Positions 1,212 through 16,374 of a stretch of DNA of 24,766 bases are shown here, one piece after another. The DNA is taken from the IMG/VR virus record IMGVR_UViG_3300029268_002517, positions 1-24,766 of that record; one strand, 5' to 3'. Each line of letters opens with the position of its first letter. Positions within the stretch are counted from its first letter, which is position 1. The notes under the pieces were generated by a model. That model worked only from the letters and a program-made list of their open reading frames with translations. It was not told the DNA's origin and searched no databases. The position numbers were made by a program, and so were the translations under genes. This DNA comes from a virus.

Positions 1212-2065
1212 GGGTTCCCCTTTCCGGTTTCCGCTTTCCCGCTTCCGCTTTTGAAAGTTGCCGTGTCGCCGTCCACCTCGGCCTGCGAACCGAGCGAGGC
1301 GAGCAGATCCGCGCGGATCTCCGGCGAGAACCGCGCCAGGCTCGCCTCGACTTTGTCATTGAACCCAACCTCCGGCATTTCGAGCTGGTCATCCGGTTTG
1401 AGCGCGCCGAGCGAGATCGCCTCTTCGCGCGAGATGTCGCGGATTCCCATGCCGCTGCTGTAATCGTAGGGCGGGAACGGAGTCTGGAAGCGGGAGATCG
1501 CCGACCAGATCGGAGAGTCCTTGCGCGCGATCATGCGTCCGCCGAAAAACTCGCCGCCGCGATCCGACCAGCGCGCGTGCCAGTTGCGCGGAACCATGCG
1601 GTCCTCCTCGCGATAAAGCTCCTGGCACGGGAACGCGTCGAGCGCGCCCTCTGCCTGTCCGGCCTTCCATCGCGCAAACTCCTGCGCCTCGCGTTTATTG
1701 AAAGCGTAGATGAGCCCGAGACGGCCGCGCGACGTGTGATCCCGCAGCGTGCCCTCGCGGCCCGGCTCCGGAATATAGCCCGAGTCCTGGAGCGCCTTGC
1801 GAATGTCGCGAACGAACGAAGAGCGCGAGACCAGGCGCGGGCCGTGTTCCACGTCCTCACTCTCCAGCTCCAGCGCGGCCTGGATCTTGTCATGCATGAG
1901 CTGCAGGAGATCCGCTTTCGCAAACCGCGCCGTCCAGAACGACCGCTCGCGGAAGGCCAGCGGCAACTGCGCCCACTCGGCGCTGGTGAGTTCCCGCGCG
2001 ACCGGAGTCTTCGCATTCATGCGGGCCACCGCTTCGGCAAGAGGCATGGGATCGGAGAGCGTCAT
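1208..2065 (-). CDS. Minor head protein, Mu gpF-like head morphogenesis protein
   Basis: A 285-residue protein resembling the F-like minor head proteins of transposable phages, which sit inside or at the portal of the capsid and help head assembly. The recognisable core is residues 105-225: a helical stretch ending FARWKAGQ, then FPCQELYR, RNWHARW, GGRMIARKDSPIW and SRFQTPFPPYDYSSGMGIRD. These Trp/Pro/Gly-rich motifs are what I know from F-like C-termini. The start overlaps the stop of the gp36-like gene (ATGA). Its place is odd: in Mu, F directly follows the portal and precedes the protease, whereas here it comes after capsid and gp36-like genes. The last 15 codons are built from a heptamer array (GSGKAETGKG), so the true C-terminus may simply have been extended by repeat DNA. 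Confidence 0.65.
   Translation of the reverse strand: MTLSDPMPLAEAVARMNAKTPVARELTSAEWAQLPLAFRERSFWTARFAKADLLQLMHDKIQAALELESEDVEHGPRLVSRSSFVRDIRKALQDSGYIPEPGREGTLRDHTSRGRLGLIYAFNKREAQEFARWKAGQAEGALDAFPCQELYREEDRMVPRNWHARWSDRGGEFFGGRMIARKDSPIWSAISRFQTPFPPYDYSSGMGIRDISREEAISLGALKPDDQLEMPEVGFNDKVEASLARFSPEIRADLLASLGSQAEVDGDTATFKSGSGKAETGKGNP
1215..1249. repeat. Heptamer array, unit TTCCGCT-like
   Basis: Five degenerate 7-bp units (TTCCCCT, TTCCGGT, TTCCGCT, TTCCCGC, TTCCGCT). In the sense direction they read as GGAA-rich purines just before the GTG of the G-like gene and also encode the end of the F-like gene. Confidence 0.7.
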
Positions 2066-2517
2066 AATCCGGACTGTGCCTCCCTTCCGAAATGTGATGG
2101 CCGCGCGGAAATCCTCGGCGATGGATTCTTTTTCTCGGCTTCCGGCAGCACCGCATCATCCGGCTGCTCGATGGTATCCTTGCCATCCGCGATGCGGTTG
2201 AGGTCCGCCTCCGCGCGGTCGAGCGTGCGGCGCTCGTCTTCCTTGAGCTCCAGACCGACCGCCATTTTCAAACGCGCGATGATCATGTCGACCGCCAGAT
2301 CCCGCAGCCCTTTTGGAATCCGGGCGGGATCGGCATCCACGCGATTGCTCGCGTTGCTGGCGATCTTCCGGCGCACGGTGTCGACGACGCCCTGGATCAC
2401 GCCAGGCGCACGGTCCGGCTGACCTTGTGCCTTCGCTTTTTCCGAGCACGCATCAATCACCTTCGCGACCTTTGCCTCGCGAAGAGTCTCAAGCGTTATG
2501 GGAATCCAGTTGCTCAT
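2062..2517 (-). CDS. DUF1320 family protein, Mu gp36-like
   Basis: A 151-residue protein starting MSNWIPITLETLREAKVAK, matching the start typical of the DUF1320/Mu gp36 family, small head-neck proteins encoded just after the major capsid gene. The first 105 residues are mostly helical: a DNA-adaptor-like N-terminus, a run of basic and acidic helices (VDTVRRKIASNASNRV, GLRDLAVDMIIARLKMAVG), then the DRAEADLNRIADGK helix characteristic of this family. The C-terminal 40 residues are charged and probably disordered. It lies one gene after the capsid protein, with the pilin-like gene intervening, and overlaps the F-like gene by 4 nt, so it is translated with the late operon. The family role is likely head completion by analogy with other gp36-like proteins; the sequence gives no direct proof of function. 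Confidence 0.75.
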   Translation of the reverse strand: MSNWIPITLETLREAKVAKVIDACSEKAKAQGQPDRAPGVIQGVVDTVRRKIASNASNRVDADPARIPKGLRDLAVDMIIARLKMAVGLELKEDERRTLDRAEADLNRIADGKDTIEQPDDAVLPEAEKKNPSPRISARPSHFGREAQSGL

Positions 2518-2563
2518 TTATCCAAGTCTGCGGCCCGGCGAGGGCCTGGCCGCAGGGTTTGAA

Positions 2564-3064
2564 TCAACGGTTGTAGATCGTGCTGGAAAGGCTCTCGATG
2601 GTGAGGGCCGCGTTGCTAGCCGTGTTCGCGTTCTGCACGTCCGCCAGGCGCAGGAATTGCACGTTTCGCAACTCGGTCGAATCGGTCGGCCCGAAGTTCC
2701 AGAAGTGCACCACGCTGTTTGTGCCATTGGCCGCGATGTTGCCGGAGCTGAACGGCTTCGTGGTTGTCCAGGTCGTGCCGTCCGCGCTCGCGTCAAATCG
2801 GAATACGACATTGTTCGTATCCGCCGCGCCGAGCTTGAACTTGGCGACGAACCCGACGCCCTCGCTGCCCCGCACATAAATGGCCGGGGTGGTGACGGTG
2901 GCGGTCGTATTCGTGGCAACGGTGTTCGTGCTCGTCGTCAGCGTCGCGACGTTGAAGGCGTCGACCTGGGCGTGCAAAAACTGCGTCGGCAGGGTGATCA
3001 GTGAGATGACCGCGATCATTGCAATCGCGATGATGAGTTCGATGAGGCTGAATTTTGATTTCAT
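2564..3064 (-). CDS. Type IV pilin-like N-terminus fused to a beta-rich domain, inside the head operon
   Basis: A 166-residue protein whose first 30 residues look like a type IV prepilin or pseudopilin: MKSK, then FSLIELIIAIAMIAVI, a long hydrophobic helix with Glu at position 5 counted from Phe, followed by SLITLPTQF. The residue before the would-be cleavage point is Lys, not the Gly that prepilin peptidase normally needs. The remainder (about 35-166) is Thr/Asn-rich beta sequence (VATNTTATVTTPAIYVRG, FRFDASADGTTWT) like a surface or fibre domain. It lies between the capsid and gp36-like genes, where Mu has no such gene. Its leader is a 7-bp-period A/C-rich array running right up to the ATG, with no Shine-Dalgarno site. 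It may be a head decoration, a membrane-anchored assembly factor or a captured pseudopilin. The gene itself is well supported; function unknown. Confidence 0.75.
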   Translation of the reverse strand: MKSKFSLIELIIAIAMIAVISLITLPTQFLHAQVDAFNVATLTTSTNTVATNTTATVTTPAIYVRGSEGVGFVAKFKLGAADTNNVVFRFDASADGTTWTTTKPFSSGNIAANGTNSVVHFWNFGPTDSTELRNVQFLRLADVQNANTASNAALTIESLSSTIYNR

Positions 3065-3092
3065 GGTTTTGGATGTTAGGTTTTTGATTTTA
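3065..3092. repeat. Heptamer array directly upstream of the pilin-like gene
   Basis: Four 7-bp units (GGTTTTG, GATGTTA, GGTTTTT, GATTTTA), equal to two 14-bp units. On the sense strand this is an A/C-rich leader ending right at the ATG, with no Shine-Dalgarno site. Confidence 0.55.
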
Positions 3093-3119
3093 CTAAGGAT
3101 TTATCCTTGCGCCGCCACG

Positions 3120-3148
3120 ACCCTGGCGACGCTTGCGCGCCCCAGGGT
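3120..3148. terminator. Inverted repeat after the capsid gene
   Basis: ACCCTGG (3120-3126) and CCAGGGT (3142-3148) form a 7-bp stem with a 15-base loop in the gap between the capsid and pilin-like genes; a second small repeat AAGGA/TCCTT lies at about 3095-3108. Partial termination or mRNA-end stabilisation after the abundant capsid gene is possible. Confidence 0.3.
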
Positions 3149-3187
3149 GTTGCGACTTGTCGGATCACGCCGACGCATCAGGTTTGA

Positions 3188-4114
3188 TCAGGCGATGTTG
3201 ATGAGCTTTCCGGCTTCGCCGTTGGTCTCCTTCACATCCATCGACCAGTCCATCTTCACGACCTCGCCCCGGTCGTCTTCCTTCCGGTAGGAGCCGGGAG
3301 CCATCCAGCGGTTGCGGACGCGGAAGGTCTTCATGAAGCTCGGGTCGCGCCGTGTGGGGCTCGGGTTCCGGGCGAAGATGAGGACCTTGCTCGCGAGAGC
3401 GAAGGCCATTGCCGCCGCCTTGCCCTTGGGCTCGGTGTCGGTGGCCAGGAAGCTGATCTTCGTGCTGGTATTACCAACGAAGAGGCGCTTCATGTTTTCG
3501 AGCGTGGGGGCGATGGCCTCGATGCCGGGGAAGTAGCCCTTCACCATTTTATTGGCGAAGAACGCGATCATCGTGGCCGGATCGATGACGATGCCGACTT
3601 CCATGCGCGACCCGCCGCCTGCGGCGAGAAGCACCGAGACGATGACCTCGTTCCACTTCGCGACCGGGTCGAAGTCCGCGTTCGAGAGCGTGCCCGCATT
3701 CGGGACAACCGTCGCGTTGGCGACGGCGAGCTCGATGACGCGTTTCTCGTGCGCCATCCCGCCCAGGCTCGCGGCCTCGTCGGCGGCTTCCATGAGCAGG
3801 TTCTCGCCCTCGGATTCCTCGATCTCGATGTCATCGAGAGGAACGTCGAGCGCGTGCGGGGCGCAGTTGAAGTCCGCGTCGGTGCGGTCGAAGGCGAGCC
3901 GTGTGGCTGGGCCTCCGAGCCCCCGGAGCGTCTCCGGCAACTTGAACCGGGTCTCCTTGTCGTAGACTTTGTATTTCCCGGTGTGCTTGACGACTTCGAC
4001 AGTCGGCGCGATGAAGTCGGCGATCTCGCCGGTCTCTTCGCGGGCACGTCCCTGGGCGTATGCCTGAACGGTCGGACGACCGCTCAGAGTGCTGAGTTTT
4101 GCTGTATCTCCCAT
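3188..4114 (-). CDS. Major capsid protein
   Basis: A 308-residue protein in the position of the Mu T-type major head subunit, directly after the protease/scaffold and decoration genes. Length and composition (Ala/Val/Glu-rich, no membrane segments, no Cys clusters) fit an HK97-fold capsid protein. Suggestive regions are an acidic spine-like segment around residues 95-115 (DDIEIEESEGENLLMEA), the long helix AADEAASLGGMAHEKRVIELA, the domain with GIVIDPATMIAFFANKMVKGYFPG, and a C-terminal strand FRVRNRWMAPGSYRKEDDRGE. It would form the icosahedral shell after cleavage and expansion. The leader is unusual: it has no clear Shine-Dalgarno site but a 42-nt heptamer array with two copies of a 14-bp unit. 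Identification relies mainly on synteny and overall form; conserved residues of the family cannot be verified by eye. Confidence 0.8.
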   Translation of the reverse strand: MGDTAKLSTLSGRPTVQAYAQGRAREETGEIADFIAPTVEVVKHTGKYKVYDKETRFKLPETLRGLGGPATRLAFDRTDADFNCAPHALDVPLDDIEIEESEGENLLMEAADEAASLGGMAHEKRVIELAVANATVVPNAGTLSNADFDPVAKWNEVIVSVLLAAGGGSRMEVGIVIDPATMIAFFANKMVKGYFPGIEAIAPTLENMKRLFVGNTSTKISFLATDTEPKGKAAAMAFALASKVLIFARNPSPTRRDPSFMKTFRVRNRWMAPGSYRKEDDRGEVVKMDWSMDVKETNGEAGKLINIA

Positions 4115-4124
4115 AATGGTGTTT

Positions 4125-4166
4125 TTTTGGTTACTGCGTTTTGACTACTGCGTTTTGGTTTTGATC
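4125..4166. repeat. Heptamer/14-mer array upstream of the capsid gene
   Basis: Six 7-bp units: TTTTGGT, TACTGCG, TTTTGAC, TACTGCG, TTTTGGT, TTTGATC. Two 14-bp units match at 12 of 14 positions. It forms most of the capsid leader. Confidence 0.65.
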
Positions 4167-4171
4167 TTCGA

Positions 4172-4588
4172 TCAGTTGACGGTGACGTTGCCGACCGCCA
4201 GGGGGCGGACCTTGACGAGCTGCCCGTCAACGAAGTCCTCCTCGGCGATGGCAACCACGCGGTAGGTGCCGCCAGCCACGGGCAGCGCCCGGAGCTTGCC
4301 CGCGTCGGCGGGCGTGGAGGGATCGGCCAGCACGAGCTGGTCGCCCTGGTTTCCGGCCCCTTTGGCAACCACGCGGCAGTTCTTCTCGCCGGTGAACGGC
4401 TCGAACTGCCCCGCGCTGTCAAGCGCCTCTCCGCTCACGCAGAGAAAGGACGGGATGTCGGTGATGGCCGTGGGCAGAAGTGCCCCGGTGCTTGCGAGCT
4501 TCACGAGGAAGCCCTCCTTGTCGGTCAGAGCCACGCCGCAATTGAGCGGGAGCTGGCCGATTTTTGTGTCGGACTGTGTGGGATGCAT
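4172..4588 (-). CDS. Head decoration protein (probable)
   Basis: A 138-residue, beta-rich protein with no membrane segment, lying between the protease/scaffold and the major capsid genes, the usual place of small capsid-stabilising decoration proteins (gpD-like or DUF2190-like). It shows the pattern typical of such proteins: an N-terminal extended arm (MHPTQSDTKIG), short strands with small residues (GVALTDKEGFLVKLASTGALL, YRVVAIAEEDFVDGQLVKVRPL) and Pro/Ala-rich turns. It probably binds the outside of the expanded capsid. The ATG has no obvious Shine-Dalgarno site and is preceded by a heptamer array starting about 12 nt upstream. Position carries most of the weight here. Confidence 0.7.
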   Translation of the reverse strand: MHPTQSDTKIGQLPLNCGVALTDKEGFLVKLASTGALLPTAITDIPSFLCVSGEALDSAGQFEPFTGEKNCRVVAKGAGNQGDQLVLADPSTPADAGKLRALPVAGGTYRVVAIAEEDFVDGQLVKVRPLAVGNVTVN

Positions 4589-4600
4589 GATGATTTTTTA

Positions 4601-4642
4601 GGTTCTTGGTTCTTGGTTCTTGGTTCCTGGTGCTTGGTTTAC
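4601..4642. repeat. Heptamer array upstream of the decoration gene, unit GGTTCTT
   Basis: Three perfect GGTTCTT units, then GGTTCCT, GGTGCTT and GGTTTAC. The array fills the gap between protease stop and decoration start and includes the protease stop codon. Confidence 0.8.
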
Positions 4643-5130
4643 TTGGCCGCTTTCGCCTCTTCCTCGGACCTGGCCTGCTCGAAGCAAGCGCGGTAACCAC
4701 GGGAGCGGTTGGCGGTGTGGAGTTCGTTGGCGCGGTTCGCGATGCGTCCGGCTGTGGCCTTGTCGGCTGCGGTTGCATCGCCTTCCTCCTGCGTGTCGCC
4801 AGTCACGGCGGGCGTTTTCACCGTCGCGCGATTGTGGATGACCGGTGTGGCCGGGGCGGTGACGGGCAATTTGCTTTTGCCCTTGGCGAGCAAGGCGAGC
4901 GCGCTGGCGCGGTTGCTCATGAGCAGGGGCTTCACAGCCTTGCGCTCTTCGACATCGGTGATCCCGGCTGCCGTGAGATCGCTCTCGGCAATGGAATCCA
5001 GCAACGCGTCGTGGTTGGTTTTGAGCGTGTCGTAAAGACCCGCCCGGTTTTTAATGGCCCCGATCTCCGCAACGGCGGCGTCTTCCGACGCATCCGGCTT
5101 CAAACCGAGGACGGTGTTGACTTTCGTCAT
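4639..5130 (-). CDS. Nested scaffold protein from internal start (Mu gpZ-like)
   Basis: An in-frame ATG at 5130, inside the protease gene, has its own AGGAG site 8 nt upstream and would make a 163-residue protein identical to the protease C-terminus. It starts MTKVNTVLGLKPDASEDA and contains only the Ala/Lys/Glu-rich helical scaffold part, without the protease motifs. In Mu, I (protease) and Z (scaffold) share a stop codon in this same arrangement, so a separate scaffold is expected in excess over the protease during prohead assembly. The site is seen in the sequence; that it is used is inference. Confidence 0.6.
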   Translation of the reverse strand: MTKVNTVLGLKPDASEDAAVAEIGAIKNRAGLYDTLKTNHDALLDSIAESDLTAAGITDVEERKAVKPLLMSNRASALALLAKGKSKLPVTAPATPVIHNRATVKTPAVTGDTQEEGDATAADKATAGRIANRANELHTANRSRGYRACFEQARSEEEAKAAK

Positions 5131-5676
5131 AGTGTTTTCTCCTGTGGTTTCGTCGGGGTTTTTCCCGGACATGGTTGACGCGGTGCCGCCGCGACGGTTT
5201 GACAGAGGCAATGCGCCTCTCAAATTTGGATCGTTGGTGAGACCGGCGCGGTCGATGACCGTGGGACGCATGCGGCCTTTGGAAATATCCGGGCCATCCC
5301 AGACCGGGGAAATGAAGCGGTAGCGGCCCCCCTTCAGCGCGGCCTCACCGGTGTCGGAAAGATTGATCTTTCCCCACAGCCCATCGGCGCGGTTCTGGAC
5401 ACCTACGAGCCAGCCGGCTGCGGCGCTGCTCTTCGTTTTGTCATGAGAGAAGTGATCGAAATCCACAAGCAGCCCACCAAAGTTCGGCGCGCCGGACTTT
5501 TTCTCAAAGTCCTGGACCAGCGCGGTGATCGCCGCGTCGTCCACGACCTGGAGCACTTCCTCGACTTTCCCGTCGTCATATTCCCGGTCGCCGGGAAATT
5601 CCCCCTTGGGTGAAAGGTGGAACCACCCGTCTGCCGGGATCTCGAACTGCCCGTTTGGAAGCCGGTTCAGGATCAT
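4639..5676 (-). CDS. Prohead protease with C-terminal scaffold, Mu gpI-like
   Basis: A 345-residue protein resembling the Mu I family, which matures the capsid by cleaving scaffold and head proteins. The N-terminal half (about 1-130) carries the protease signature: GWFHLSPKGEFPG, then LLVDFDHFSHD with the likely catalytic His75, AAGWLVGVQNRADGLWGKINL, and GRYRFISPVW with Ser123 as candidate nucleophile. The C-terminal half is charged, Ala-rich and helical, as a scaffold should be. I chose ATG 5676 because a GAGGAGGG site lies 7 nt upstream and the protease domain begins there; the open frame continues upstream through structured non-coding DNA to 5922, but that part has no protein-like character. 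It lies downstream of the portal, separated by an unusual 145-nt gap. An internal start probably makes the scaffold alone, as for Mu Z. Confidence 0.85.
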   Translation of the reverse strand: MILNRLPNGQFEIPADGWFHLSPKGEFPGDREYDDGKVEEVLQVVDDAAITALVQDFEKKSGAPNFGGLLVDFDHFSHDKTKSSAAAGWLVGVQNRADGLWGKINLSDTGEAALKGGRYRFISPVWDGPDISKGRMRPTVIDRAGLTNDPNLRGALPLSNRRGGTASTMSGKNPDETTGENTMTKVNTVLGLKPDASEDAAVAEIGAIKNRAGLYDTLKTNHDALLDSIAESDLTAAGITDVEERKAVKPLLMSNRASALALLAKGKSKLPVTAPATPVIHNRATVKTPAVTGDTQEEGDATAADKATAGRIANRANELHTANRSRGYRACFEQARSEEEAKAAK

Positions 5677-5821: not shown

Positions 5822-7444
5822 TCATGGCTGTTTGGATTGACTGGTTTTGACGGATGCGCGGACCCCTTCGAGCGCTGCCGCTCCGAGGGCGGATTCAAAG
5901 ACCCCGGCCATCTCCGCGACATCCATGTCGCCGAGCAGCTCCGGGAGCCGGGCCTGCGTATCCTTGAAAAACTGGAGCAGCTCCGCGTCGCTCACGTTGC
6001 CGTCCGCGACCTTGGCCTCCATCCGGGCCAGTAGATCCTCAATCGGAGACACCCAGCCGGAGGGCACGCCCAGCGTGTCGGCAACAAGAGCGGTCGCACG
6101 ATTGGAGATCCGGCGATTGGCCACCGGTGCATTGACCAGGTCGCCAGGATTTCCACGGGAGGGAGAGGCTCCTTCCGAGCCGACTTGTTGCGGCGCGGCT
6201 TTTACGACCACGTCGTATCCGGTCTTTTCCGAGATCTGGCCAGGGCTGACCTCAAAGCCCGCCAAGCTCAGATCCTTGACGCCGGTGATGAATTCCCCGG
6301 TGTCGGTCTCCTCTTCCGCCGCGATGGCAAAATACGCGAGGACCGGTTCTCCGGAGTGGCTCAGCTCCAGGATCTCTTTGTCAAACTGCCGCTGGAAGCT
6401 CTCGCTGATCCGCCCGGCCAGGCCGCGAGCAATGCGGTCAAAGGTTTCGCTGTGTGCTCCACCGGCCAGCGTGCCGCTGCCGCTTTCCGCCAGCATGGTC
6501 AGAAGCCCGCTCGTGATCGCGAGAACAATCTGTTCATCCTGATAGCGCAGGTGGTCGCGGAACGGATTCACTCCGCGAGCGCCATTGTCCACGCTCTTGA
6601 TATCGGCACCGTTCGGCAAAACGCCCCGTGCGTTCCCGATCACCTTTTCCGCGATCTCCAGATACTTGTCTTCCTCTCCAATCCGAACCTGCTGCGGCAT
6701 GATCGCGAAAATCGACGGGATGCCGTAGCTCTCGATGTAGCCGTCCCAATCTTTTTGCGAGAGGTTTTTCCGGACGAACGCGATCAGCGCGATTTCATTG
6801 ATTGGATCTTCGACCTCGCGAACCAACACCCGGCCGGGCGGGATCTCTTCGCCCTTGGTCCGACCGAACCTGGCATCCGGATTATATTGCCAATCGCCAT
6901 TGAGACCTTCGCGGACCAGATACCACTGCTCGATGGGTTCCAGGCGCGTGATTGCCCCGTCATTCTGCCCGCCCGCCGCGTAGCATTTTTCGAGATGGGC
7001 AAACCCGCGAAACTCAGCCAGGCAAAAATGTTCGATTGCCTGGCGAAGATTATCGATCCGGTCATACGCCGCTCGCAAGGTGTCGCGCTGTTTCTCGGCC
7101 ATCGCCTTCGTCGTGCCGGGCGGCAGCTTCTTTTCGTCCACCGTGCGGATTTCCCAATCCATGCTGCCCACGGATGCAATGAGCGAACGCTTGCCGCCAC
7201 GCAGCACCGCGTCGCGTTTCTCGATGAAACGGTATGTCCACTGCAGCTCCGCGTAGGCCCCGCGTTCCCCGGCCTCCAGGAGCGAGACCACACGCCGGAC
7301 GTTCAGGCCGCGAAGGGGATTGTAGGCATCGCGCCAGATGTTCGCGCGCTTCACATGCAGCGTGATATTCGCAACCTGGACAATCGTGCTGATCGTCTTC
7401 GTCGCGGACTCTTTGGCCCGGTTGAATATCTGCGAGAGTTTCAT
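5822..7444 (-). CDS. Portal protein, DUF935 family (Mu gp29-like)
   Basis: A 540-residue protein matching the DUF935/Mu gp29 portal family, which forms the dodecameric ring at one capsid vertex through which DNA enters and leaves. Typical pieces are the N-terminal region NPLRGLNVRRVVSLLEAGERG, the segment WTYRFIEKRDAVLRGGKRSL, the LEPIEQWYL strand, the region GYIESYGIPSIFAIMP that this family shares, and the helix with LAGGAHSETFDRIARGLAGRI. The C-terminal 100 residues are Ala/Glu-rich. The ATG overlaps the terminase stop (ATGA), so translation is coupled to the packaging motor. Length is normal for the family. High confidence. Confidence 0.93.
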   Translation of the reverse strand: MKLSQIFNRAKESATKTISTIVQVANITLHVKRANIWRDAYNPLRGLNVRRVVSLLEAGERGAYAELQWTYRFIEKRDAVLRGGKRSLIASVGSMDWEIRTVDEKKLPPGTTKAMAEKQRDTLRAAYDRIDNLRQAIEHFCLAEFRGFAHLEKCYAAGGQNDGAITRLEPIEQWYLVREGLNGDWQYNPDARFGRTKGEEIPPGRVLVREVEDPINEIALIAFVRKNLSQKDWDGYIESYGIPSIFAIMPQQVRIGEEDKYLEIAEKVIGNARGVLPNGADIKSVDNGARGVNPFRDHLRYQDEQIVLAITSGLLTMLAESGSGTLAGGAHSETFDRIARGLAGRISESFQRQFDKEILELSHSGEPVLAYFAIAAEEETDTGEFITGVKDLSLAGFEVSPGQISEKTGYDVVVKAAPQQVGSEGASPSRGNPGDLVNAPVANRRISNRATALVADTLGVPSGWVSPIEDLLARMEAKVADGNVSDAELLQFFKDTQARLPELLGDMDVAEMAGVFESALGAAALEGVRASVKTSQSKQP

Positions 7445-9048
7445 CCTTCAAGGCTCCTTTCGCGACGGTTGGCATAAGCGGCAGCGGCGCGGCCGGGATT
7501 CTTGAAGACGAAGAAGGCTCCCGCCTGTTCACAGGCAAACCCGTATTCCGCCAAGCCACCGGAGACGAACGTGTCTCCATGCGCTCCGCTGGTGGAATCC
7601 ACGTCGCATTCATAACGCCCGGCGCTCTTGATCGTGAGCCGCTGGTCTTTTTTGAAATACTCGCCAGCCGGGAGATCGTAGCGGTTCTCATTGACGGCCG
7701 CGCAGTAGATGTCTCCCAGGTAGGTTTTGAAATTGATCGGCTTGTCATATCCGGCCGGGTGGATGCCTTCGCTCTCGATCACGAGTGTCGTCGGAACCAA
7801 TAAGCCGAGATGGTCGGCCAGATCTTTTGAGAAGTAGCGCTCGTTCGTGGCGGCGGCAATTAGCCCCTTCGCGCGACCACCCTCCGGACGTGCCTGAATC
7901 GTCTCGCACACCTGCTTCATCCGGTCCCGAACGATGGCAGGCTCTTTTTCCTTCCAGCACATGACCAGGCGCTGCGCCCGAAATCCGCCGTTCATTTCCG
8001 TGATTGTCACGCCGGTCGGATTGCTCGTCTCTTTGGTCGTGGTCGCCGGGTCGAAGCCGATGGAAACCACGCCCGGCCCGAGGTTTGCCCGGAGAAGATC
8101 CAGGGCGCGCCGGAAATCCCGCTCGCTTTCCACATAGACAAAGGAGCACGTCTGCGCGCCGCGCTGCTGGGCGCTTAGCAGGGCAAGGAGATCGATGGCC
8201 GCGCTGCCGCCCATCTTGTGCTCCAGGTCGTAGTTGTAGGGCATCTGCGCGCGGTTCGATGCCTGGGAGGCGAACTCCTCATAGGTCATCGCCTTGCCCT
8301 TGTTGTCGTAGAGCACGTGGCCAGCGGCGTAGGCATCCCGGAGCGTGACGCGGTGGATGAGGATGTCATCCTGCCCGCGATAGAAATTGCCTGCTGGATT
8401 CACCGGCAGTTCCACCCCTGCGGGCGGCATGGTCATCTCGAAAAACGGATGCCGGTCGTCGCGGCAGAGGTTCGAGCCGTAGATCATCTTGAGATCCGGC
8501 ACGTCGCGGAAGATCGGGTCCACGGCCTCGCGCAGAGCGATCTCCAGATTGGCGGAGGTGAAGCCCGCCTCGTCGCGCAGCACCGTGCCGCGCCAGCCGC
8601 GCGCGGTCGCCGGGTTCGGGGCGATCACAAGCTGCCGTGAATAGTCCGTGCGCGAGTGATACAAGCGCATTTCCAACCGCTTGCTGCGGTAGAGGTCCGC
8701 GAAATCCTCGCGTGACATCACGCCATAGACCTTGCCGGTCTCGGCGTCCGCGCATTTGTAATCGAGCTTGTGCTCTTCCGCGCTCGACTCGAAGACGCTG
8801 TTCACCGCCTGGGCCTCGTTGGCGACCAGGATCGCCTGCTCGGCCGCGCTCACCGTCATGTTCACCAGCTCGGTGCCCAGGAGCAGCGAGGCAGACGCCG
8901 AGATCACCGTGCTCCCGGCCTCTTTCGACATTTCGTCGAAAGCGATGCTCCCCATCGTCGTGCTCTTGCGACCGCGCCGGGTCCAGAAAAGCACGGCCAC
9001 CAGGGCGGTGGTCTCATACAGGCGGCGGGTGAATCGTTTTGATGCCAT
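7441..9048 (-). CDS. Terminase large subunit (Mu gp28-like)
   Basis: A 535-residue packaging motor with an ATPase and a nuclease domain. The deviant Walker A is at residues 22-31 (WTRRGRKSTT), followed by ISASASLLLG. The Walker B-like strand is at 155-161 (TVLRDEA, Asp159-Glu160), and the coupling region IYGSNLCRDDRHPFF follows near 190. The RNase H-like nuclease begins at VVSIGFDPATTTKE with Asp333 as its likely first metal ligand. I chose ATG 9048, two bases after the stop of the small subunit; the frame is open far upstream but overlaps that gene and lacks terminase character. It cuts and pumps the DNA into proheads; in Mu-type phages it packages from the integrated copy and includes flanking host DNA. 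It overlaps the portal start by 4 nt. Confidence 0.92.
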   Translation of the reverse strand: MASKRFTRRLYETTALVAVLFWTRRGRKSTTMGSIAFDEMSKEAGSTVISASASLLLGTELVNMTVSAAEQAILVANEAQAVNSVFESSAEEHKLDYKCADAETGKVYGVMSREDFADLYRSKRLEMRLYHSRTDYSRQLVIAPNPATARGWRGTVLRDEAGFTSANLEIALREAVDPIFRDVPDLKMIYGSNLCRDDRHPFFEMTMPPAGVELPVNPAGNFYRGQDDILIHRVTLRDAYAAGHVLYDNKGKAMTYEEFASQASNRAQMPYNYDLEHKMGGSAAIDLLALLSAQQRGAQTCSFVYVESERDFRRALDLLRANLGPGVVSIGFDPATTTKETSNPTGVTITEMNGGFRAQRLVMCWKEKEPAIVRDRMKQVCETIQARPEGGRAKGLIAAATNERYFSKDLADHLGLLVPTTLVIESEGIHPAGYDKPINFKTYLGDIYCAAVNENRYDLPAGEYFKKDQRLTIKSAGRYECDVDSTSGAHGDTFVSGGLAEYGFACEQAGAFFVFKNPGRAAAAYANRRERSLEG

Positions 9049-9050
9049 GA

Positions 9051-10674: not shown

Positions 10675-10678
10675 AAAT

Positions 10679-11257: not shown

Positions 11258-11273
11258 AGCCAACCTCCCGGTT

Positions 11274-11301
11274 GGAATGCGAAATGTGAAATGCGAAATG
11301 A
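11274..11301. repeat. Heptamer array, unit GAAATGC-like
   Basis: Units GGAATGC, GAAATGT, GAAATGC and GAAATGA lie between the membrane-peptide stop and the hydrolase ribosome site. Confidence 0.75.
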
Positions 11302-11306
11302 GGGGA

Positions 11307-11833: not shown

Positions 11834-12393
11834 AATGAAGTGGCCTGGCGGCTATCGTCTGCAGACGACACGGAGAGCGTCCCCGCCGTTGCCGCCAGGC
11901 GCTTTGGTTGGTTGTAGATTGTGAGGGATGGAGTGGAGAGCGGAGCTCCGCGCTTCCACGCAGGAGCAACCGCAGATAGATTCTGAAACTCCAGGCCGTC
12001 CTGGTTGATTGGCTTGAGCACGACGACGACGAGCGGGAGCCGGTGGAATGCAATGAGCTTGCGCAGCCGTTGCAGGAACCGTGCATCGTCCTTGCTTTCC
12101 AGGATCAGCGCGACCGCCCCGGCCTTCCTGGTCTGCGATGCGTAGTTCAAACTTTGTCCGACTGCCTCGCACCATTTCGCGGCAAACTCGACCTCGACCG
12201 CATGCGTGGCGGTGAGCACATCGCACCGCGTGCCGTCGCGCATCCGGACTTCACTTTTTGCCCCGGACTCGGACGCCAGTGCATCCGCATACCAACTCTC
12301 CAGATGCTGGTGCCCGGCATAGACCGGCGTGCAGGAGGAAAGAACGCTGGCCACGGCGAAGATCACCGTGACCAGCGCTGCTATGCTACGCAA
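11830..12393 (-). CDS. Lipoprotein with PD-(D/E)XK nuclease-like core
   Basis: From TTG 12393 this reads 187 residues: signal MRSIAALVTVIFAVASV with lipobox LSSC (Cys21), then a domain with GTRCDVLTATHAVEVEFAAKW and EAVGQSLNYASQ. This order (Asp58, Glu67/Glu69, Lys73, then the Gln80-x3-Tyr84 pattern) is that of PD-(D/E)XK folds of the RecB type; strands AVALILES and LPLVVVVLKP complete the core. The exact DxK spacing is irregular, so catalytic activity is uncertain. The open frame runs up to 12528, but its first 45 codons pass through two heptamer arrays and look non-coding, so I place the start at the signal peptide. It is the first gene of the late operon. The combination of an exported lipid anchor and a nuclease-like domain is unusual. 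Confidence 0.65.
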   Translation of the reverse strand: MRSIAALVTVIFAVASVLSSCTPVYAGHQHLESWYADALASESGAKSEVRMRDGTRCDVLTATHAVEVEFAAKWCEAVGQSLNYASQTRKAGAVALILESKDDARFLQRLRKLIAFHRLPLVVVVLKPINQDGLEFQNLSAVAPAWKRGAPLSTPSLTIYNQPKRLAATAGTLSVSSADDSRQATSL

Positions 12394-12394
12394 A

Positions 12395-12422
12395 TTCCGC
12401 AATCCGCATTCCGCATTCCGCA
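12395..12422. repeat. Heptamer array upstream of the nuclease-like lipoprotein, unit TTCCGCA
   Basis: Units TTCCGCA, ATCCGCA, TTCCGCA, TTCCGCA. Its GGAA-rich complement lies immediately before the TTG start of the lipoprotein gene. Confidence 0.8.
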
Positions 12423-12490
12423 ATCGAAAGAGATTCCCGGACACGGCTGAGATGAACTCCCCACCACGGGCACAACCGTGCCGGGAAAGA

Positions 12491-12525
12491 AAAGGAGGAA
12501 GGCCGAAGGATGAAGGATGAAGGCT
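12491..12525. repeat. Heptamer array at the plus-strand gene start, unit GAAGGAT
   Basis: Units AAAGGAG, GAAGGCC, GAAGGAT, GAAGGAT, GAAGGCT. It contains both the AAGGAGG site and the ATG at 12510. Confidence 0.8.
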
Positions 12526-12818
12526 CACTTGGCTTGCCCTCCGACCGCCGCTTTCGCACCTTTCAGCGCATGGATCACTACCGTCCCCTTTCCTTCTACA
12601 AGAGCGCTGCCGAGCGTCTCTGCGAAGCAGGCTGGATCGACCGCGCCGTCGTAAGCCAGACTGACCTGCGGGTCCGCTGGACCGACAAGGGCCGCGCCCG
12701 CGCCGCTCAGCTCCTCGACCTTCTCGCCGAGTTGGAAGAGGACGGCCAATCCCTGGACTGCGAGACGCTCGAAACGATCTACGCGATCTGCGGCATGAAC
12801 GATCCTCGAACGCCGTAG
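12510..12818 (+). CDS. Small winged-helix-like protein next to the late promoter region
   Basis: A 102-residue protein (82 residues if it starts at ATG 12570). The part from MDHYRPLSFYKSAAERL has a helix, a strand-like segment (AVVSQTDLRVRWTDKG) and a long helix ARAAQLLDLLAELEEDG, a pattern seen in small winged-helix or phage regulatory proteins. Start choice is open: ATG 12510 has AAGGAGG 11 nt upstream but lies inside a heptamer array, while ATG 12570 is where protein-like sequence begins. The plus-strand reading is preferred over the antisense frame because its composition is protein-like. It stands alone on the plus strand, diverging from the late operon, and is a candidate regulator of late genes, but this is only position-based. 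Confidence 0.6.
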   Translation: MKDEGSLGLPSDRRFRTFQRMDHYRPLSFYKSAAERLCEAGWIDRAVVSQTDLRVRWTDKGRARAAQLLDLLAELEEDGQSLDCETLETIYAICGMNDPRTP

Positions 12819-12901
12819 GAATTCCATGAAGCGCGGATCAGGCGACATCGCCGTCCCAAAAACCGCCCGTTCACGCAGAGCCTCCGGAACAGCGTCCCGT
12901 T

Positions 12902-12936
12902 TTTCAGCTTTCCGCTTTCCGCTTTCCGCCTTATGC
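12902..12936. repeat. Heptamer array, unit TTTCCGC
   Basis: Units TTTCAGC, three perfect TTTCCGC, and CTTATGC, in the non-coding gap between convergent genes. Confidence 0.8.
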
Positions 12937-12964
12937 TTGCTTCCTGTGGTGAGCGCCGCGTTCA

Positions 12965-12985
12965 TGTGGCAGCGAACCTGCCACA
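12965..12985. terminator. Perfect inverted repeat, possible bidirectional terminator or regulatory hairpin
   Basis: TGTGGCAG (12965-12972) and CTGCCACA (12978-12985) pair over 8 bases around loop CGAAC. It lies where the plus-strand winged-helix transcript and the minus-strand moron transcript converge. No T-run follows on either strand, so a rho-independent terminator is doubtful. Confidence 0.35.
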
Positions 12986-13040
12986 ATCAAAATAAGCCGG
13001 GAAAAGCTACACGCGGCTCGCGGGACTCACGGTGAGAAAA

Positions 13041-14084
13041 TTAAACCGGCCCTTTTCTCAATGAACTCTCTGCCATCAATGCCAGCATCGCTGATGAAAT
13101 ACACCGGAGTTTTTGACACCGAGAAACCCAGTCTTGCAACGCGTTTTTCCATTCGTTTTTCGGTCTGACATATTTTGGGGAATACTTTTTAATAATGGAG
13201 GCAATCAATCCCGGTTGACTGCGAGCGAGAGTTTCCATCTCGCTGCGCTTCGCTGACTTTTTGAAATGAATTCCGGCAGCTTGTAGTGATTCGGAAAATT
13301 CGGCTTTTGTGACACCGTTCGGCTCGTCTTCATCAGTGGGTTCTTGGAAGCACCCAATCCATTGAATGAAATGCAGGTTCAAATCTGCGCTGCACCCGTA
13401 TTGCCGATCACCGTAGTAGAGATCAGGGCGGAGCGCCAATGCACCCCAAGTTCTCGTAAAATAATCTACTATGACAAGGCGGGCCATTGGGGGAATGCGT
13501 ATCATCCATTCCCCTACGGTCACAACTTCGTTTCCGACATCGCGCATCAACTCAACTACAGCCTCCTCTGCCTGCTCCACCTTCCGGCGCTTTTTGTGTG
13601 GCCCGTCTTCCACATCAGCTTGAATCGCTGCATTCTCCCGAAGAATATCCAGCATCCCGATTGGCGGCCGCCATGTGATGCTCGCCAACCTGCTGGAGAA
13701 TAAATCCGTGGTCGCGTGAGCTGTGCTGCATCGGTTCATGCTGTTGTCTTGCAGTGCCATTCTCAGTCCGAGGAGATTGATAGCTCGCAACTCTGCGCTA
13801 GATTCAGCGTCCAGACACCAGCGATCATCAACGCGAACACAAAACCCTCGCCGAAGAAGTTCTTTTTCTGCAACTCCGTTGCTCGTGAGAAATCCCCACA
13901 ACTCCACTATTGCCTCGAATTCTCCGTTCGCAACCCACCCTGCCACTACGGAGGTGAAATCTGTTACAGGGTAGTATCCTCCTGGGCTGTAGTTTGGATC
14001 CAAAAATGGATATTCTTGGTGGGACCACGGTTTGAGTTGGGTGAATAGGTTTGAAACAGCAACTGTTTTGAAAGTGTGTGTCAT
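13041..14084 (-). CDS. Uncharacterised repressor-linked gene, probable lysogenic-conversion (moron) gene
   Basis: A 347-residue protein I do not recognise. It has no signal peptide or membrane span. The N-terminal 120 residues are aromatic-rich (QLKPWSHQEYPFLDPNYSP, AIVELWGFLTSNG, VDDRWCLDAE). A basic patch (GPHKKRRKVEQ) lies at 161-171. Residues 258-300 (TKAEFSESLQAAGIHF, then SEMETLARSQPGLIASII) look like a SAP-type helix-loop-helix DNA-binding motif. It follows the repressor on the same strand with a 29-nt gap, so it is likely expressed in the lysogen. Its base composition is visibly lower in GC than its neighbours, which suggests separate acquisition. Superinfection exclusion or host defence is a reasonable guess from position alone. 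The stop is TGA near 13041. Confidence 0.75.
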   Translation of the reverse strand: MTHTFKTVAVSNLFTQLKPWSHQEYPFLDPNYSPGGYYPVTDFTSVVAGWVANGEFEAIVELWGFLTSNGVAEKELLRRGFCVRVDDRWCLDAESSAELRAINLLGLRMALQDNSMNRCSTAHATTDLFSSRLASITWRPPIGMLDILRENAAIQADVEDGPHKKRRKVEQAEEAVVELMRDVGNEVVTVGEWMIRIPPMARLVIVDYFTRTWGALALRPDLYYGDRQYGCSADLNLHFIQWIGCFQEPTDEDEPNGVTKAEFSESLQAAGIHFKKSAKRSEMETLARSQPGLIASIIKKYSPKYVRPKNEWKNALQDWVSRCQKLRCISSAMLALMAESSLRKGPV

Positions 14085-14113
14085 GTCTTTTTATGTCGCC
14101 GCAACATGGCGAG

Positions 14114-14425
14114 CTAAATTTTTTTGACCGCAGATTCAAGGTCGGCGCGTAGTTTTGTCAGCTTCTTCTCTGCGTCCCGCGCTCGCTGCCGCCAGTTGTC
14201 CTGAACGAACGGTTCGCCGCTCGGTGGGGCCGTGCCAGCAAGGAGCCACTCCATCGACACCCCGAGCAAGTCAGCCAGATTGAGTAGCTCTTTCGCCTTC
14301 GGAATTCTCCCGTTGAGGTATTTTGAGATTGCCGCCTGCGAGCATCCTGCCGCTGCGGCTAGGTCCTTCTGGGTCAAGTGGTGCCTCATCATCTCAGATG
14401 TGAGGCGGTCTCCAAATAATTCCAA
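14114..14425 (-). CDS. XRE-family helix-turn-helix phage repressor
   Basis: A helix-turn-helix protein of 103 residues from TTG 14425, or 92 from ATG 14392. The XRE domain reads LFGDRLTSEMMRHHLTQKD, then LAAAAGCSQAAISKYLNGR (the classic helix 2-turn-helix 3), then KELLNLADLLGVSMEWLLAG. The C-terminal 30 residues (RQRARDAEKKLTKLRADLE) form a coiled coil for dimerisation. No S24 protease domain is present, so control is not of the lambda CI cleavage type. I favour the TTG because it completes helix 1, but neither start has a good ribosome site. It lies head-to-head with the early operon, whose first ATG would directly abut the TTG. It most likely acts like Mu c or a Cro-like switch protein. Confidence 0.85.
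   Translation of the reverse strand: MELFGDRLTSEMMRHHLTQKDLAAAAGCSQAAISKYLNGRIPKAKELLNLADLLGVSMEWLLAGTAPPSGEPFVQDNWRQRARDAEKKLTKLRADLESAVKKI
14384..14405. promoter_or_regulatory. Near-perfect palindrome, candidate operator at the repressor/early junction
   Basis: The inner part CATCTCAGATG (14390-14400) is a perfect 5-1-5 inverted repeat, and the flanks CCTCA (14384-14388) and TGAGG (14401-14405) continue it, with one extra T on the left side. The two 10-base arms would fit a dimeric HTH repressor. It covers the tandem ATG codons of the repressor and lies about 20 nt before the early ATG 14426, so binding could control both directions. No clear sigma70 -10/-35 pair is visible. The palindrome is seen directly; its role is inferred. 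Confidence 0.5.
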
Positions 14426-14665
14426 ATGGCAATGATGCCGCAACCAAAGGCGAAAGCCAAAGCAAAAACCGCAGCTCCGGCGGCGGTTAAAACCCCGAAC
14501 GAAACCCAGCTCCGGCGCTACCACGTCATCTGCGACGGCCGAATGTCGGTGGTCCAGGCCGACTATGTGCGTATCGACGACAACCACTACACCTTCATCG
14601 GCGAGGACGGCGAGCCGAACGGATTCTTCCCGACTGACCGCACCGCCATCGTCCGCCTGTCGTGA
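14426..14665 (+). CDS. First early-operon protein, unknown
   Basis: A 79-residue protein I do not recognise. The first 25 residues are Lys/Ala/Pro-rich (QPKAKAKAKTAAP) and probably disordered or DNA-contacting. The rest (RRYHVICDGRMSVVQADYV, then HYTFIGEDGE and FFPTDRTAIVRLS) alternates hydrophobic and polar residues like a small beta barrel. It is the first gene of the rightward early operon, head-to-head with the repressor. The next gene overlaps its stop (GTGA), which supports translation. The ribosome site is poor; ATG 14435 is an alternative start. Confidence 0.6.
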   Translation: MAMMPQPKAKAKAKTAAPAAVKTPNETQLRRYHVICDGRMSVVQADYVRIDDNHYTFIGEDGEPNGFFPTDRTAIVRLS

Positions 14666-14808
14666 AGAAGCGCCGCTCCATCCGTTTCCCTGGCATCTGC
14701 AAATTCGCAGCGAAGGCCAAGGTCACCCGCATCCACGCCTACCGCGTGCTTGCGGGCGAGCGGCGCAGCCCGCGCATCGAAAAAATGTGGAAGGCATTTC
14801 AAAAGTGA
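14662..14808 (+). CDS. 48-residue Cro/Ner-like DNA-binding protein
   Basis: A short gene starting with GTG in a GTGA overlap with the preceding stop. It reads MKKRRSIRFPGICKFAAKAK then VTRIHAYRVLAGERRSPRIE. The segment FAAKAKVTRIHAYRVLAGERRSP has the helix-turn-helix pattern of small phage regulators: small residue at the turn, hydrophobic spacing, and the RVLxGERRSP ending common in Cro-like proteins. The N-terminus is strongly basic. At the very start of the early operon, next to the repressor, it could be the Ner or Cro equivalent that turns repressor and early transcription down after induction. Confidence 0.6.
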   Translation: MKKRRSIRFPGICKFAAKAKVTRIHAYRVLAGERRSPRIEKMWKAFQK

Positions 14809-14904
14809 GCGCCTTCCCTTTCCTCGCCGAGCCCGCGCCACTGCGTGCGCCGCGCGATCAAACGCGAACTCGGAATCTCTGAACCCGACGAACGCGCCGC
14901 CTGA
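14805..14904 (+). pseudogene. Possible frameshifted small gene
   Basis: GTG 14805 overlaps the stop of the HTH gene and begins MSAFPFLAEPAPLR, then stays open only to 14882. Shifting by one base near 14850 gives a convincing ending, RRAIKRELGISEPDERAA, stopping at 14904 just before the next gene. Either one base has been gained or lost, or neither frame is used. It would encode about 32 residues of unknown role. Confidence 0.3.
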
Positions 14905-14910
14905 AGATTT

Positions 14911-15147
14911 ATGAACACGAAAGCCACCACCAAAAAAGCCAGCCCGAAAAGCCCATCGGGGGAACCGCAGATCCACGCCGCCGAAATCCTTGAGGCCGTC
15001 GCCTATCGTCTCTACGAGCACGCCGACACCTGCTCCGAGCGAGCCGCCGAGCGTCGCGGAGACATCGATCCCCGCTGGGTCCTCATGTGGACAATCCTCA
15101 CCGACGAGCTGATCGCCCTCGCCGAGATCGCCGAAGGCCGCAAATGA
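14911..15147 (+). CDS. Small early protein of unknown function
   Basis: A 78-residue protein I do not recognise. A Lys/Thr/Ser/Pro-rich N-terminus (MNTKATTKKASPKSPSGE) leads into an amphipathic helical body: AAEILEAVAYRLYEHADTC, then WVLMWTILTDELIALAEIAEG. It has no membrane span or known catalytic motif. It lies in the run of short regulatory genes between repressor and transposase and is followed after 27 nt by a DNA-binding protein gene. Confidence 0.65.
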   Translation: MNTKATTKKASPKSPSGEPQIHAAEILEAVAYRLYEHADTCSERAAERRGDIDPRWVLMWTILTDELIALAEIAEGRK

Positions 15148-15174
15148 AAAAGCCGTTGAGCCAAACCGCCTGAA

Positions 15175-15516
15175 ATGAGCGAATCACAATCCTCCTGGGA
15201 CTGGCTGGTGCCGACGACGAAGGATCTACTTCGGACCGACGAGGTCGCCCGGTTCATCGGACGCAAGGAAACGTTCGTCTATGAGTTGGTCGAGGAGGGG
15301 AAGCTCGAAGCCTTCGAGCCCACCGACCGCGAGGTCAAGCGCAAGGTGATCACCTCGCGCTCCGTGCGCCTGGTCCTCGCCGAACAGGCGCGCAGCAATC
15401 CCGCCAACTTCGCCGAGCGCGTTCTCTCCCTCCTTCCGCACCTCGACTCCGCTTCCCTCTCCCGGCTCATCGCCGAGGCCACCCGCCTCCGCTCGAAAAA
15501 ACTCACCGCCATCTAA
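15175..15516 (+). CDS. MerR/excisionase-like helix-turn-helix protein
   Basis: A 113-residue protein with a winged helix-turn-helix at about 20-70: TDEVARFIGRKETFVYELVE, then GKLEAFEPTDREVKRKVITS and RSVRLVLAE. This matches the HTH_17/excisionase pattern in which the turn is followed by a short wing. The C-terminal 40 residues (FAERVLSLLPHLDSASLSRL) are helical and probably mediate oligomerisation. It precedes the transposase by one gene and may control early transcription or transposition. An excision factor for the downstream integron-type recombinase is also conceivable but unsupported. Confidence 0.75.
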   Translation: MSESQSSWDWLVPTTKDLLRTDEVARFIGRKETFVYELVEEGKLEAFEPTDREVKRKVITSRSVRLVLAEQARSNPANFAERVLSLLPHLDSASLSRLIAEATRLRSKKLTAI

Positions 15517-15519
15517 TCC

Positions 15520-16374
15520 ATGAAACCCCGTTCCACATTCCCCATTTCGCATTCCGCATTGCCGACGAAGTCGGCCAAAACTTCCGCCCCGCCCGTGGGC
15601 AGCAGCGATCCCAAGTCAGGTATCATCGTCGCAACGGGCAAACTTTCAAATTCCACATTGAGCATTTCGCATTCCGAGGACGCAGTCCTCGGCGAACAGC
15701 TCACCGAGCAATACCAGCTCGCGTGCGGCGCGATGACCGAGGTTCTCAAGTTCGGGGCCATGATGATGATGCTCCGGGAAAACCTCTCCACGCGTGGAGT
15801 CAACTCTGCGAAACGCGGTCCGGGAACCAAAGGCACCGGTCTGAAAGCCTGGCTGAAAGAGCACGCGCCGGAGGTCAAGGAGGCCACCGCCTACCGTTTC
15901 ATGAACGTGGCGATGGCGGTCTCGGAAAAATTCGCGTTGCCGAAGAAGATCAAGTTCGCGGAGCTGGCGTCGAAGAGCGCCGCAGATCTTCCGAAGGCGC
16001 TCCAGAAAAAGCAGCTTGAGCTGTGGGACTTTGTGAACGGCACGAGCCAGCGCTCCTGGCTCGACCAGTTCACGCCGAAGGGAGGATCGCGGGAGAGGCC
16101 GAATGGAACGAAGCGGCGAACGCGAGACATGAAGGATTTCGATGATGCGCTTTCGCAGGCGATGGACTGGTATGAGCTGGGCGTTGTGGGGCTCAAGGAG
16201 TCCTACCTTCACAGCGACGAGCGCTGGATGGTGCTGCCCGAGGTGCAGCTCGCCAACGTCGCCGACCTGGTGAAGCTCTGGGCCAAGAAGCTCGACGACG
16301 TGTGCCGCTCGCGCAAAGTCGTCCCGAGCAAACTGCGCGACTGGGACAAGGATCTTTCGGAGGCCGGGCTATGA
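15520..16374 (+). CDS. Unknown early protein upstream of the transposase, doubtful N-terminus
   Basis: The frame encodes 284 residues. The part that looks like protein begins near residue 57 (VLGEQLTEQYQLACGAMTEV) and runs through helical segments GTGLKAWLKEHAPEVKEATAY and a basic region GGSRERPNGTKRRTRD (about 190-205) to the C-terminus. The pattern of a helix, a Lys-rich loop and LKEHAPEVKEATAYRFM recalls DUF3102-type proteins of mobile elements, with low confidence. The first 55 codons contain two heptamer arrays 120 bases apart and low-complexity Ser/Pro sequence, so the true start may be downstream. The stop overlaps the transposase start (ATGA). Confidence 0.65.
   Translation: MKPRSTFPISHSALPTKSAKTSAPPVGSSDPKSGIIVATGKLSNSTLSISHSEDAVLGEQLTEQYQLACGAMTEVLKFGAMMMMLRENLSTRGVNSAKRGPGTKGTGLKAWLKEHAPEVKEATAYRFMNVAMAVSEKFALPKKIKFAELASKSAADLPKALQKKQLELWDFVNGTSQRSWLDQFTPKGGSRERPNGTKRRTRDMKDFDDALSQAMDWYELGVVGLKESYLHSDERWMVLPEVQLANVADLVKLWAKKLDDVCRSRKVVPSKLRDWDKDLSEAGL
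15531..15558. repeat. Heptamer array in the N-terminal codons of the gene upstream of the transposase
   Basis: Units TTCCACA, TTCCCCA, TTTCGCA, TTCCGCA, beginning 11 bases after the ATG at 15520. Confidence 0.7.
15651..15678. repeat. Second heptamer array, 120 bases after the first
   Basis: Units TTCCACA, TTGAGCA, TTTCGCA, TTCCGAG, the same unit family and the same reading frame as the array at 15531. Confidence 0.7.

What the first reader, a model, noticed from the sequence alone, without database searches (positions are those of the whole stretch)
1215..15678. Degenerate heptamer arrays with different units at many gene junctions
At least ten short arrays have a strict 7-bp period but different units (TTCCGCT, GGTTCTT, TTCCGCA, GAAGGAT, TTTCCGC, GAAATGC, TACTGCG+TTTTGRY). 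Each is locally near-uniform, 28-42 bp long, and lies at a start or stop codon or in a gap. Unlike CRISPR there are no spacers, and unlike ordinary microsatellites the units differ from place to place while the period stays 7. Cyanobacterial STRR heptamers are the only named analogue I know. An unknown process, such as slippage or repair with a 7-nt step, or selection for leader properties could create them.
Basis: partly seen in the sequence, partly recalled or inferred. Interest (0 to 1): 0.7.

Follow-up and report, generated by a model that had tools for sequence, protein, structure and literature searches.

The report
Seven-base repeat arrays between phage genes
This bacterial virus, related to phage Mu, carries many short stretches in which a seven-letter DNA word is repeated between its genes; the pattern is real and recurs in related phages and in Verrucomicrobiota bacteria, but it belongs to an already described class of bacterial repeats that probably grow by local copying slips.

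Summary
The window is part of a Mu-like phage whose relatives lie in Verrucomicrobiota genomes. Lag-7 arrays score far above local dinucleotide shuffles (5 against a mean of 0.01). Only lag 14, its echo, and a single lag-9 array also rise among lags 4-20. The same 7-bp bias appears in 23 related phage contigs (23 arrays at lag 7, 8 at lag 8, 3 or fewer at most other lags) and in some Verrucomicrobiota genomes. It is absent from phages Mu and B3, a Nostoc phage, 50 kb of E. coli, and 21 Mu relatives of other hosts. Arrays are about 13 times denser between genes than inside them. Three claims need correcting. The "different units" largely collapse into one family (TTYCGCN) plus GGTTCTT and GAAGGAT. 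Two sites are 14-bp duplications. Units are shared within a genome more than between genomes. Neighbouring copies are most alike and arrays come and go at orthologous junctions, which points to local tandem duplication in 7-bp steps, tolerated in spacers. I found no evidence of a leader function. Heptamers as the commonest long bacterial repeat, with a polymerase-slippage explanation, are published. Prophage enrichment (12 arrays in 41 kb against 14 in about 358 kb in one genome) appears new.

The parts
1211..1251 (-). 7-bp array, TTCCGCT family (sense GCGGAAA), covering the last codons of the minor-head-like gene and abutting the GTG start of the next gene
   Evidence: TRF period 7 and 14; lag7 22/34, lag14 23/27
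4127..4158 (-). 14-bp two-copy duplication (TACTGCGTTTTGAC) between the gene in the MCP position and its neighbour; weak at lag 7
   Evidence: lag7 11/25, lag14 15/18; the L002 junction has a single copy
4601..4639 (-). 7-bp array GGTTCTT (sense AAGAACC), 5.6 copies, filling the gap between two genes
   Evidence: lag7 28/32; no array at the orthologous junction of L002
11276..11300 (-). 7-bp array GAAATGC, one mismatch from the TTCCGCA family, just upstream of the gene that starts near 11260
   Evidence: lag7 16/18
12396..12425 (.). 7-bp array TTCCGCA in the region between oppositely oriented genes
   Evidence: lag7 21/23
12492..12523 (+). 7-bp array GAAGGAT at the possible start of the gene at 12510-12818
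   Evidence: lag7 21/25
12902..12938 (+). 7-bp array TTTCCGC (a rotation of TTCCGCT) downstream of the gene at 12510-12818; the same site in L011 holds five units with different letters
15526..15560 (+). degenerate 7-bp array ATTYCGC at the 5' end of the ORF before the transposase gene
   Evidence: lag7 22/28
15646..15678 (+). weak array of the same ATTYCGC family
   Evidence: lag7 16/26
3188..4114 (-). gene in the major capsid position (no Pfam match); 82% identical homologue in L002
4639..5922 (-). Mu I-like head maturation protease
   Evidence: PF10123, E = 9.8e-25
5822..7444 (-). Mu-type portal protein
   Evidence: PF06074, E = 3.2e-39
7441..9048 (-). large terminase-like protein (by position next to the portal gene; no Pfam match), used to find relatives
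   Evidence: homologues in viral and Verrucomicrobiota contigs
16371..18224 (+). Mu A-like transposase
   Evidence: phrog_310, E = 6.6e-08
18241..19398 (+). AAA transposition protein (Mu B / TniB-like)
   Evidence: PF13401 and PF05621
20308..20832 (+). Mu Gam-like end-protection protein
   Evidence: PF07352, E = 6.7e-13

Best explanation
These are heptameric tandem repeats of the kind already known from several bacterial phyla, carried here by a Mu-like phage of Verrucomicrobiota. SHOWN: the strict 7-bp period, the location in gene spacers, sharing of units within a genome, gain and loss at orthologous junctions, and neighbouring copies being most alike. INFERRED: each array grows by repeated local duplication of one or two units (7 or 14 bp), most simply strand slippage during replication. 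The step of 7 is set by host replication or repair rather than by the unit sequence. Arrays persist in spacers because frame-breaking 7-bp changes are removed inside genes. A few starting words spread within one genome, by exchange between arrays or because similar short seeds lie at many junctions, and prophages draw on the same words as the host. No function of their own is needed.
For: Lag 7 is singled out in the window, in 23 phage contigs and in G071, G004 and G003. Period specificity is strong in intergenic arrays of about 2.6 copies or more: G071 34 at period 7, 2 or fewer at periods 8-13, 12 at the period-14 echo; phages 14 against 4 or fewer. Mean mismatches between units rise with distance in 5-7-unit arrays (1.10, 1.28, 1.52, 1.95, 2.7 for separations 1-5), the mark of stepwise local duplication. 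Orthologous junctions between the window and L002: the GGTTCTT array and a 14-bp duplication are present in one phage and absent in the other. Units within a genome are alike (15% at one mismatch or fewer) more often than between genomes (5%) or random heptamers (1.7%). One array of G071 matches dozens of places in that genome. Prophage and host of G004 share GCTGAAA and GGGAGAT. Location outside genes: p = 4e-11 for phages, 1e-21 for G071.
Against: No slippage event in exact 7-bp steps was seen between near-identical contigs (the near-identical stretches show no indels). At the GGTTCTT junction the window and L002 gaps differ by 18 bp, not a multiple of 7 (counted by eye). Two-copy duplications in the phages are also raised at periods 8 and 9, so the 7-bp preference may act on expansion or retention rather than on birth. 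Sharing of units between loci is more than independent local slippage predicts, so an extra dispersal step has to be assumed. Why 7 and not 8 remains unexplained.
Confidence: 0.55

Rival explanations
1. Dispersed mobile heptamer families: whole arrays are copied from place to place, by recombination, template switching or an unknown enzyme, and phages pick them up from the host.
For: The same unit family lies at dozens of loci in G071 in both orientations. Units are shared within genomes and between the G004 prophage and host. The prophage is enriched: 12 arrays in 41 kb against 14 in about 358 kb, p = 3e-6.
Against: Arrays grade into one another by single substitutions in blocks, which fits local expansion. 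The L002 junction already holds a similar seed where the window has an array. No candidate enzyme was identified, and shared flanks were not tested systematically.
Confidence: 0.25
2. Selected leader elements: arrays act as unstructured or protein-binding translation leaders at start codons, as proposed for TAACTGA repeats in Beggiatoaceae.
For: Several arrays end 1-13 bp before a start codon in the sense direction, and sense strands lean to C over G.
Against: MFE of array leaders is close to that of array-free leaders (-8.1 against -9.0, permutation p = 0.38), SD-like motifs are not depleted, and array-free gaps show the same C>G lean. Some arrays lie downstream of genes, between divergent genes, or inside genes. 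The unit letters differ between orthologous sites. The leader test had only 10 arrays.
Confidence: 0.1
3. Chance or composition: G+C-rich, codon-biased DNA makes apparent heptamers.
For: Lag-7 identity over the whole window is not raised.
Against: Local dinucleotide shuffles give 0.01 arrays against 5. Control phages and E. coli have none at lag 7, including 21 Mu-like phages of other hosts, 414 kb.
Confidence: 0.01

Closest known systems
Heptameric long simple sequence repeats of bacteria (2007 survey of long SSRs cited in PMC4692102 and PMC4679880)
   Same: 7-bp unit is the commonest long repeat class, mostly intergenic, unit letters differ between genomes; polymerase slippage with a 7-nt footprint was proposed
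   Different: here in a Mu-like phage group of Verrucomicrobiota, with several unit families in one phage and enrichment in a prophage over its host
GGGAATC repeats of Xanthomonas and GGGGA(C/T)T repeats of Nostoc (PMC4692102)
   Same: degenerate heptamer arrays of 2-26 units, intergenic, near starts and stops, inverted pairs, length and sequence turnover between related species
   Different: one G-rich, possibly quadruplex-forming unit type per genome; here mixed, mostly not G-tract units
TAACTGA direct repeats of Beggiatoaceae, Cyanobacteria and Bacteroidetes (PMC4679880)
   Same: short heptamer arrays often just upstream of start codons
   Different: a single exact unit, with one-mismatch variants rare as arrays; here variants are the rule
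Cyanobacterial STRR heptamers
   Same: 7-bp tandem units in intergenic DNA (general knowledge; PMC4692102 mentions three heptamers in Calothrix)
   Different: host phylum; unit consensus not compared here

Membership tests
Bacterial heptameric simple sequence repeats | tandem unit of 7 bp in excess over other unit lengths | tested here: met
   Lag spectra of the window, phages and Verrucomicrobiota genomes
Bacterial heptameric simple sequence repeats | mainly intergenic | tested here: met
   18/29 phage arrays and 29/35 G071 arrays outside genes, with 11-12% of bases intergenic; gene calls by a simple home-made caller
Bacterial heptameric simple sequence repeats | length changes by slippage in units of 7 | tested here: inconclusive
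   Near-identical contigs show no indels; neighbour similarity fits
Cyanobacterial STRR | cyanobacterial host | tested here: not met
   All five genomes with a related terminase are Verrucomicrobiota; the window's own host is not known directly
Cyanobacterial STRR | specific STRR consensus units | not tested
   STRR consensus units were not compared
TAACTGA repeats | unit TAACTGA | tested here: not met
   Unit lists for the window and relatives
CRISPR | repeats of about 21-40 bp separated by unique spacers | tested here: not met
   Contiguous 7-bp units without spacers (sequence)
Replication iterons | conserved repeat at an origin or in a replication-protein gene across relatives | tested here: not met
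   Arrays lie at many junctions and differ between orthologous sites; protein binding not testable here

The most novel reading that the evidence does not exclude
Cells of some Verrucomicrobiota have a replication or repair activity that adds DNA in 7-nt steps at any short seed in non-coding DNA. It acts more strongly on Mu-like prophages, so that a phage's spacers are rewritten with the words of its host and could serve as a record of past hosts.
Probability: 0.12. Interest if true: 0.75.

Novelty: new member of a known kind. Interest (0 to 1): 0.4.

Why it matters
It extends heptamer repeats to phages and to Verrucomicrobiota and gives a natural test set for an old question: why is 7 bp the favoured long-repeat unit in bacteria? 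Unit letters vary while the period stays, so the period is probably set by the machinery rather than by the sequence. If prophages really carry an excess of the host's words, the arrays could also help to assign hosts to uncultivated phages.

Tried and rejected
(1) Selection for unstructured or SD-free leaders: no difference in folding energy or SD motifs from array-free leaders. (2) Orientation coding: the C>G sense bias is also present in array-free gaps. (3) A universal unit preference: the exact (AAGAACC)n pattern hit 119 or more viral stretches against 8 and 14 for scrambled units, but after clustering 47 of 64 clusters have the array inside a gene, several of them confirmed DUF1376 genes, so this is a separate phenomenon and does not show a preference for this word in spacers. 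(4) Step-of-7 polymorphism in near-identical contigs: no indels at all in the near-identical stretches. (5) Orthologous arrays in the genus of G071: no other genome in that genus is held. (6) The window's own host: a terminase profile in 388 Verrucomicrobiota genomes found only distant relatives apart from G003. (7) Two control phage accessions (meant for BcepMu and Xp10) were not in the collection.
Full report
WHAT THE WINDOW IS. The record is a 24,766-base virus contig. It encodes a Mu-type portal, a Mu I-like protease, a Mu A-like transposase, a B/TniB-like AAA protein, a Gam-like protein and a tyrosine recombinase. The terminase-like protein has no match in 50,697 catalogued phage records. 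It has relatives in uncultivated viral contigs and in five genomes, all labelled as Verrucomicrobiota or groups within it. The host phylum is therefore inferred; the window's own host is unknown.

THE OBSERVATION. Whole-window autocorrelation at lag 7 is not raised (0.2564). The signal is local: at a segment score of 12 or more there are 5 lag-7 arrays, against a mean of 0.01 and a maximum of 1 in 100 shuffles that keep local dinucleotides. Lag 14 has 4 (the echo), lag 9 has 1, and the other lags 4-20 have 0. Tandem Repeats Finder lists seven period-7 arrays. By rotation and strand, TTTCCGC equals TTCCGCT, ATTCCGC equals TTCCGCA, and GAAATGC is one mismatch from TTCCGCA. The firm arrays therefore form one dominant family plus GGTTCTT and GAAGGAT.

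RELATED PHAGES. In 23 distinct related contigs (416 kb, window included) there are 23 arrays at lag 7, 8 at lag 8, 11 at lag 14 and 3 or fewer at the other lags. Each phage has its own words: GGTGACT in L010, GCTGAAA in L017, AACATCC in L022, CCCTCTT in L031. Ten of the 23 contigs have at least one array, so this is not universal. Phages Mu, B3 and Nostoc phage A1, 50 kb of E. coli, and 21 Mu relatives of other hosts (414 kb) have no lag-7 array.

HOST PHYLUM. Selected Verrucomicrobiota genomes show the same bias. In G071 (420 kb contiguous) the primary periods are 24 arrays of 7, 5 of 14, and 3 or fewer of any other. G004 has 22 at lag 7 (part of them in its prophage), G003 has 6, and G104 only 3 in 400 kb with no preference for 7. 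In 20 further genomes sampled for up to 20 kb each, 3 had lag-7 arrays. The trait is patchy. G071 was chosen because it was rich in one word, so its density is not representative. G071 uses the same words as the window, including GGTTCTT, GGATGAA and TTCCGCN.

WHERE THEY LIE. With a simple gene caller of my own, 18 of 29 phage arrays lie mostly outside genes (10.7% of bases; p = 4e-11), and 29 of 35 in G071 (11.9%; p = 1e-21). Some arrays counted inside genes are probably caller errors: the window array at 12902 falls in a called minus-strand ORF that conflicts with a plus-strand gene conserved in L011. Many arrays fill the few dozen bases between a stop and the next start codon.

HOW THEY CHANGE. 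Between the window and L002 (portal 89% identical), the GGTTCTT array and the 14-bp duplication are absent from L002, although a similar seed is there. Between the window and L011, the array after the gene at 12510-12818 is kept in place with five units but different letters. At the junction near 21212 the window has 9-mers and L011 has 7-mers. Within arrays, neighbouring units are the most alike. In long G071 arrays, blocks of one unit give way to blocks of another that differs by one or two bases. This is what repeated local duplication with point mutation leaves behind. Near-identical contig stretches show no indels, so the step itself was not seen.

SHARING OF WORDS. Pairs of arrays in the same genome are within one mismatch in 15% of cases, against 5% between genomes and 1.7% for random heptamers. 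One G071 array matches dozens of sites in that genome, on both strands. Independent slippage alone does not predict this; it needs common seeds or exchange between arrays. Distinct units are also more one-sided in purine content than random heptamers (78% with five or more purines or pyrimidines, against 45%).

PROPHAGE ENRICHMENT. In G004, contig C3 holds a Mu-like prophage; its left part carries head-protease, neck, Gam-like and L-alanyl-D-glutamate-peptidase-like genes. Taking 123.9-165 kb as the prophage, 12 arrays lie there against 14 in the other 358 kb examined (p = 3e-6), with the same words (GCTGAAA, GGGAGAT) inside and outside. The prophage ends were not determined, and this is one genome.

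FUNCTION. Array leaders are not less structured than array-free leaders, do not lack SD-like motifs, and share the general C>G lean of spacers. With only 10 array leaders the folding test is weak. I see no need for a function.

WHAT IS KNOWN. PMC4692102 and PMC4679880 both cite a 2007 survey in which heptamers were over-represented or the commonest long-repeat class in many or most bacterial genomes, and its suggestion that 7 nt reflects the stretch in contact with DNA polymerase. Xanthomonas, Nostoc and Beggiatoaceae have detailed examples. I found no report for Verrucomicrobiota or for phage genomes in the searches made; that is a limited search of open-licence papers.

VERDICT. A real, non-random pattern that belongs to a known kind, extended to a new phage group and phylum. 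The mechanism is most likely local duplication in 7-bp steps; the reason for 7 and the spread of words within a genome remain open.

Noticed in passing
L199:2009-2836, L260:8498-9331, L212:11177-11920 and many other loci: The exact array (AAGAACC)n recurs inside phage genes (47 of 64 sequence clusters), several confirmed as DUF1376, mid-gene in a linker, in viruses of 36-68% G+C and in more than one reading frame (20 motif-positive frames: 12, 7, 1). The nucleotide sequence, not only the peptide KNQEPRT, appears conserved, as for origin repeats in phage lambda gene O.
   Followed up: partly
2564-3064 (minus strand): An ORF in the structural module begins with a prepilin-like hydrophobic N-terminus (MKSKFSLIELIIAIAMIAVISLI by eye); a 57% identical homologue lies at the same place in L002.
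   Followed up: no
16371-18224 and 23314-24270: The contig carries both a Mu-like transposase and a tyrosine recombinase; L011 keeps both (65% and 86% identical).
   Followed up: no
L015:5673-5696, L031:6229-6252, L014:2284-2316: Octamer arrays (CACGAAGG, CACGGAGA, ACGCAGAG) form a second, smaller repeat class in the related phages.
   Followed up: no
L044:14718-14825, L064:9901-10425, L135:16404-16866: Inverted pairs of heptamer arrays of related units, as reported for Xanthomonas; in L135 the pair flanks one small gene.
   Followed up: no
21212-21233: A 9-bp array (GTCCTATCC) ends close to the start codon at the junction where L011 has a 7-bp array.
   Followed up: partly
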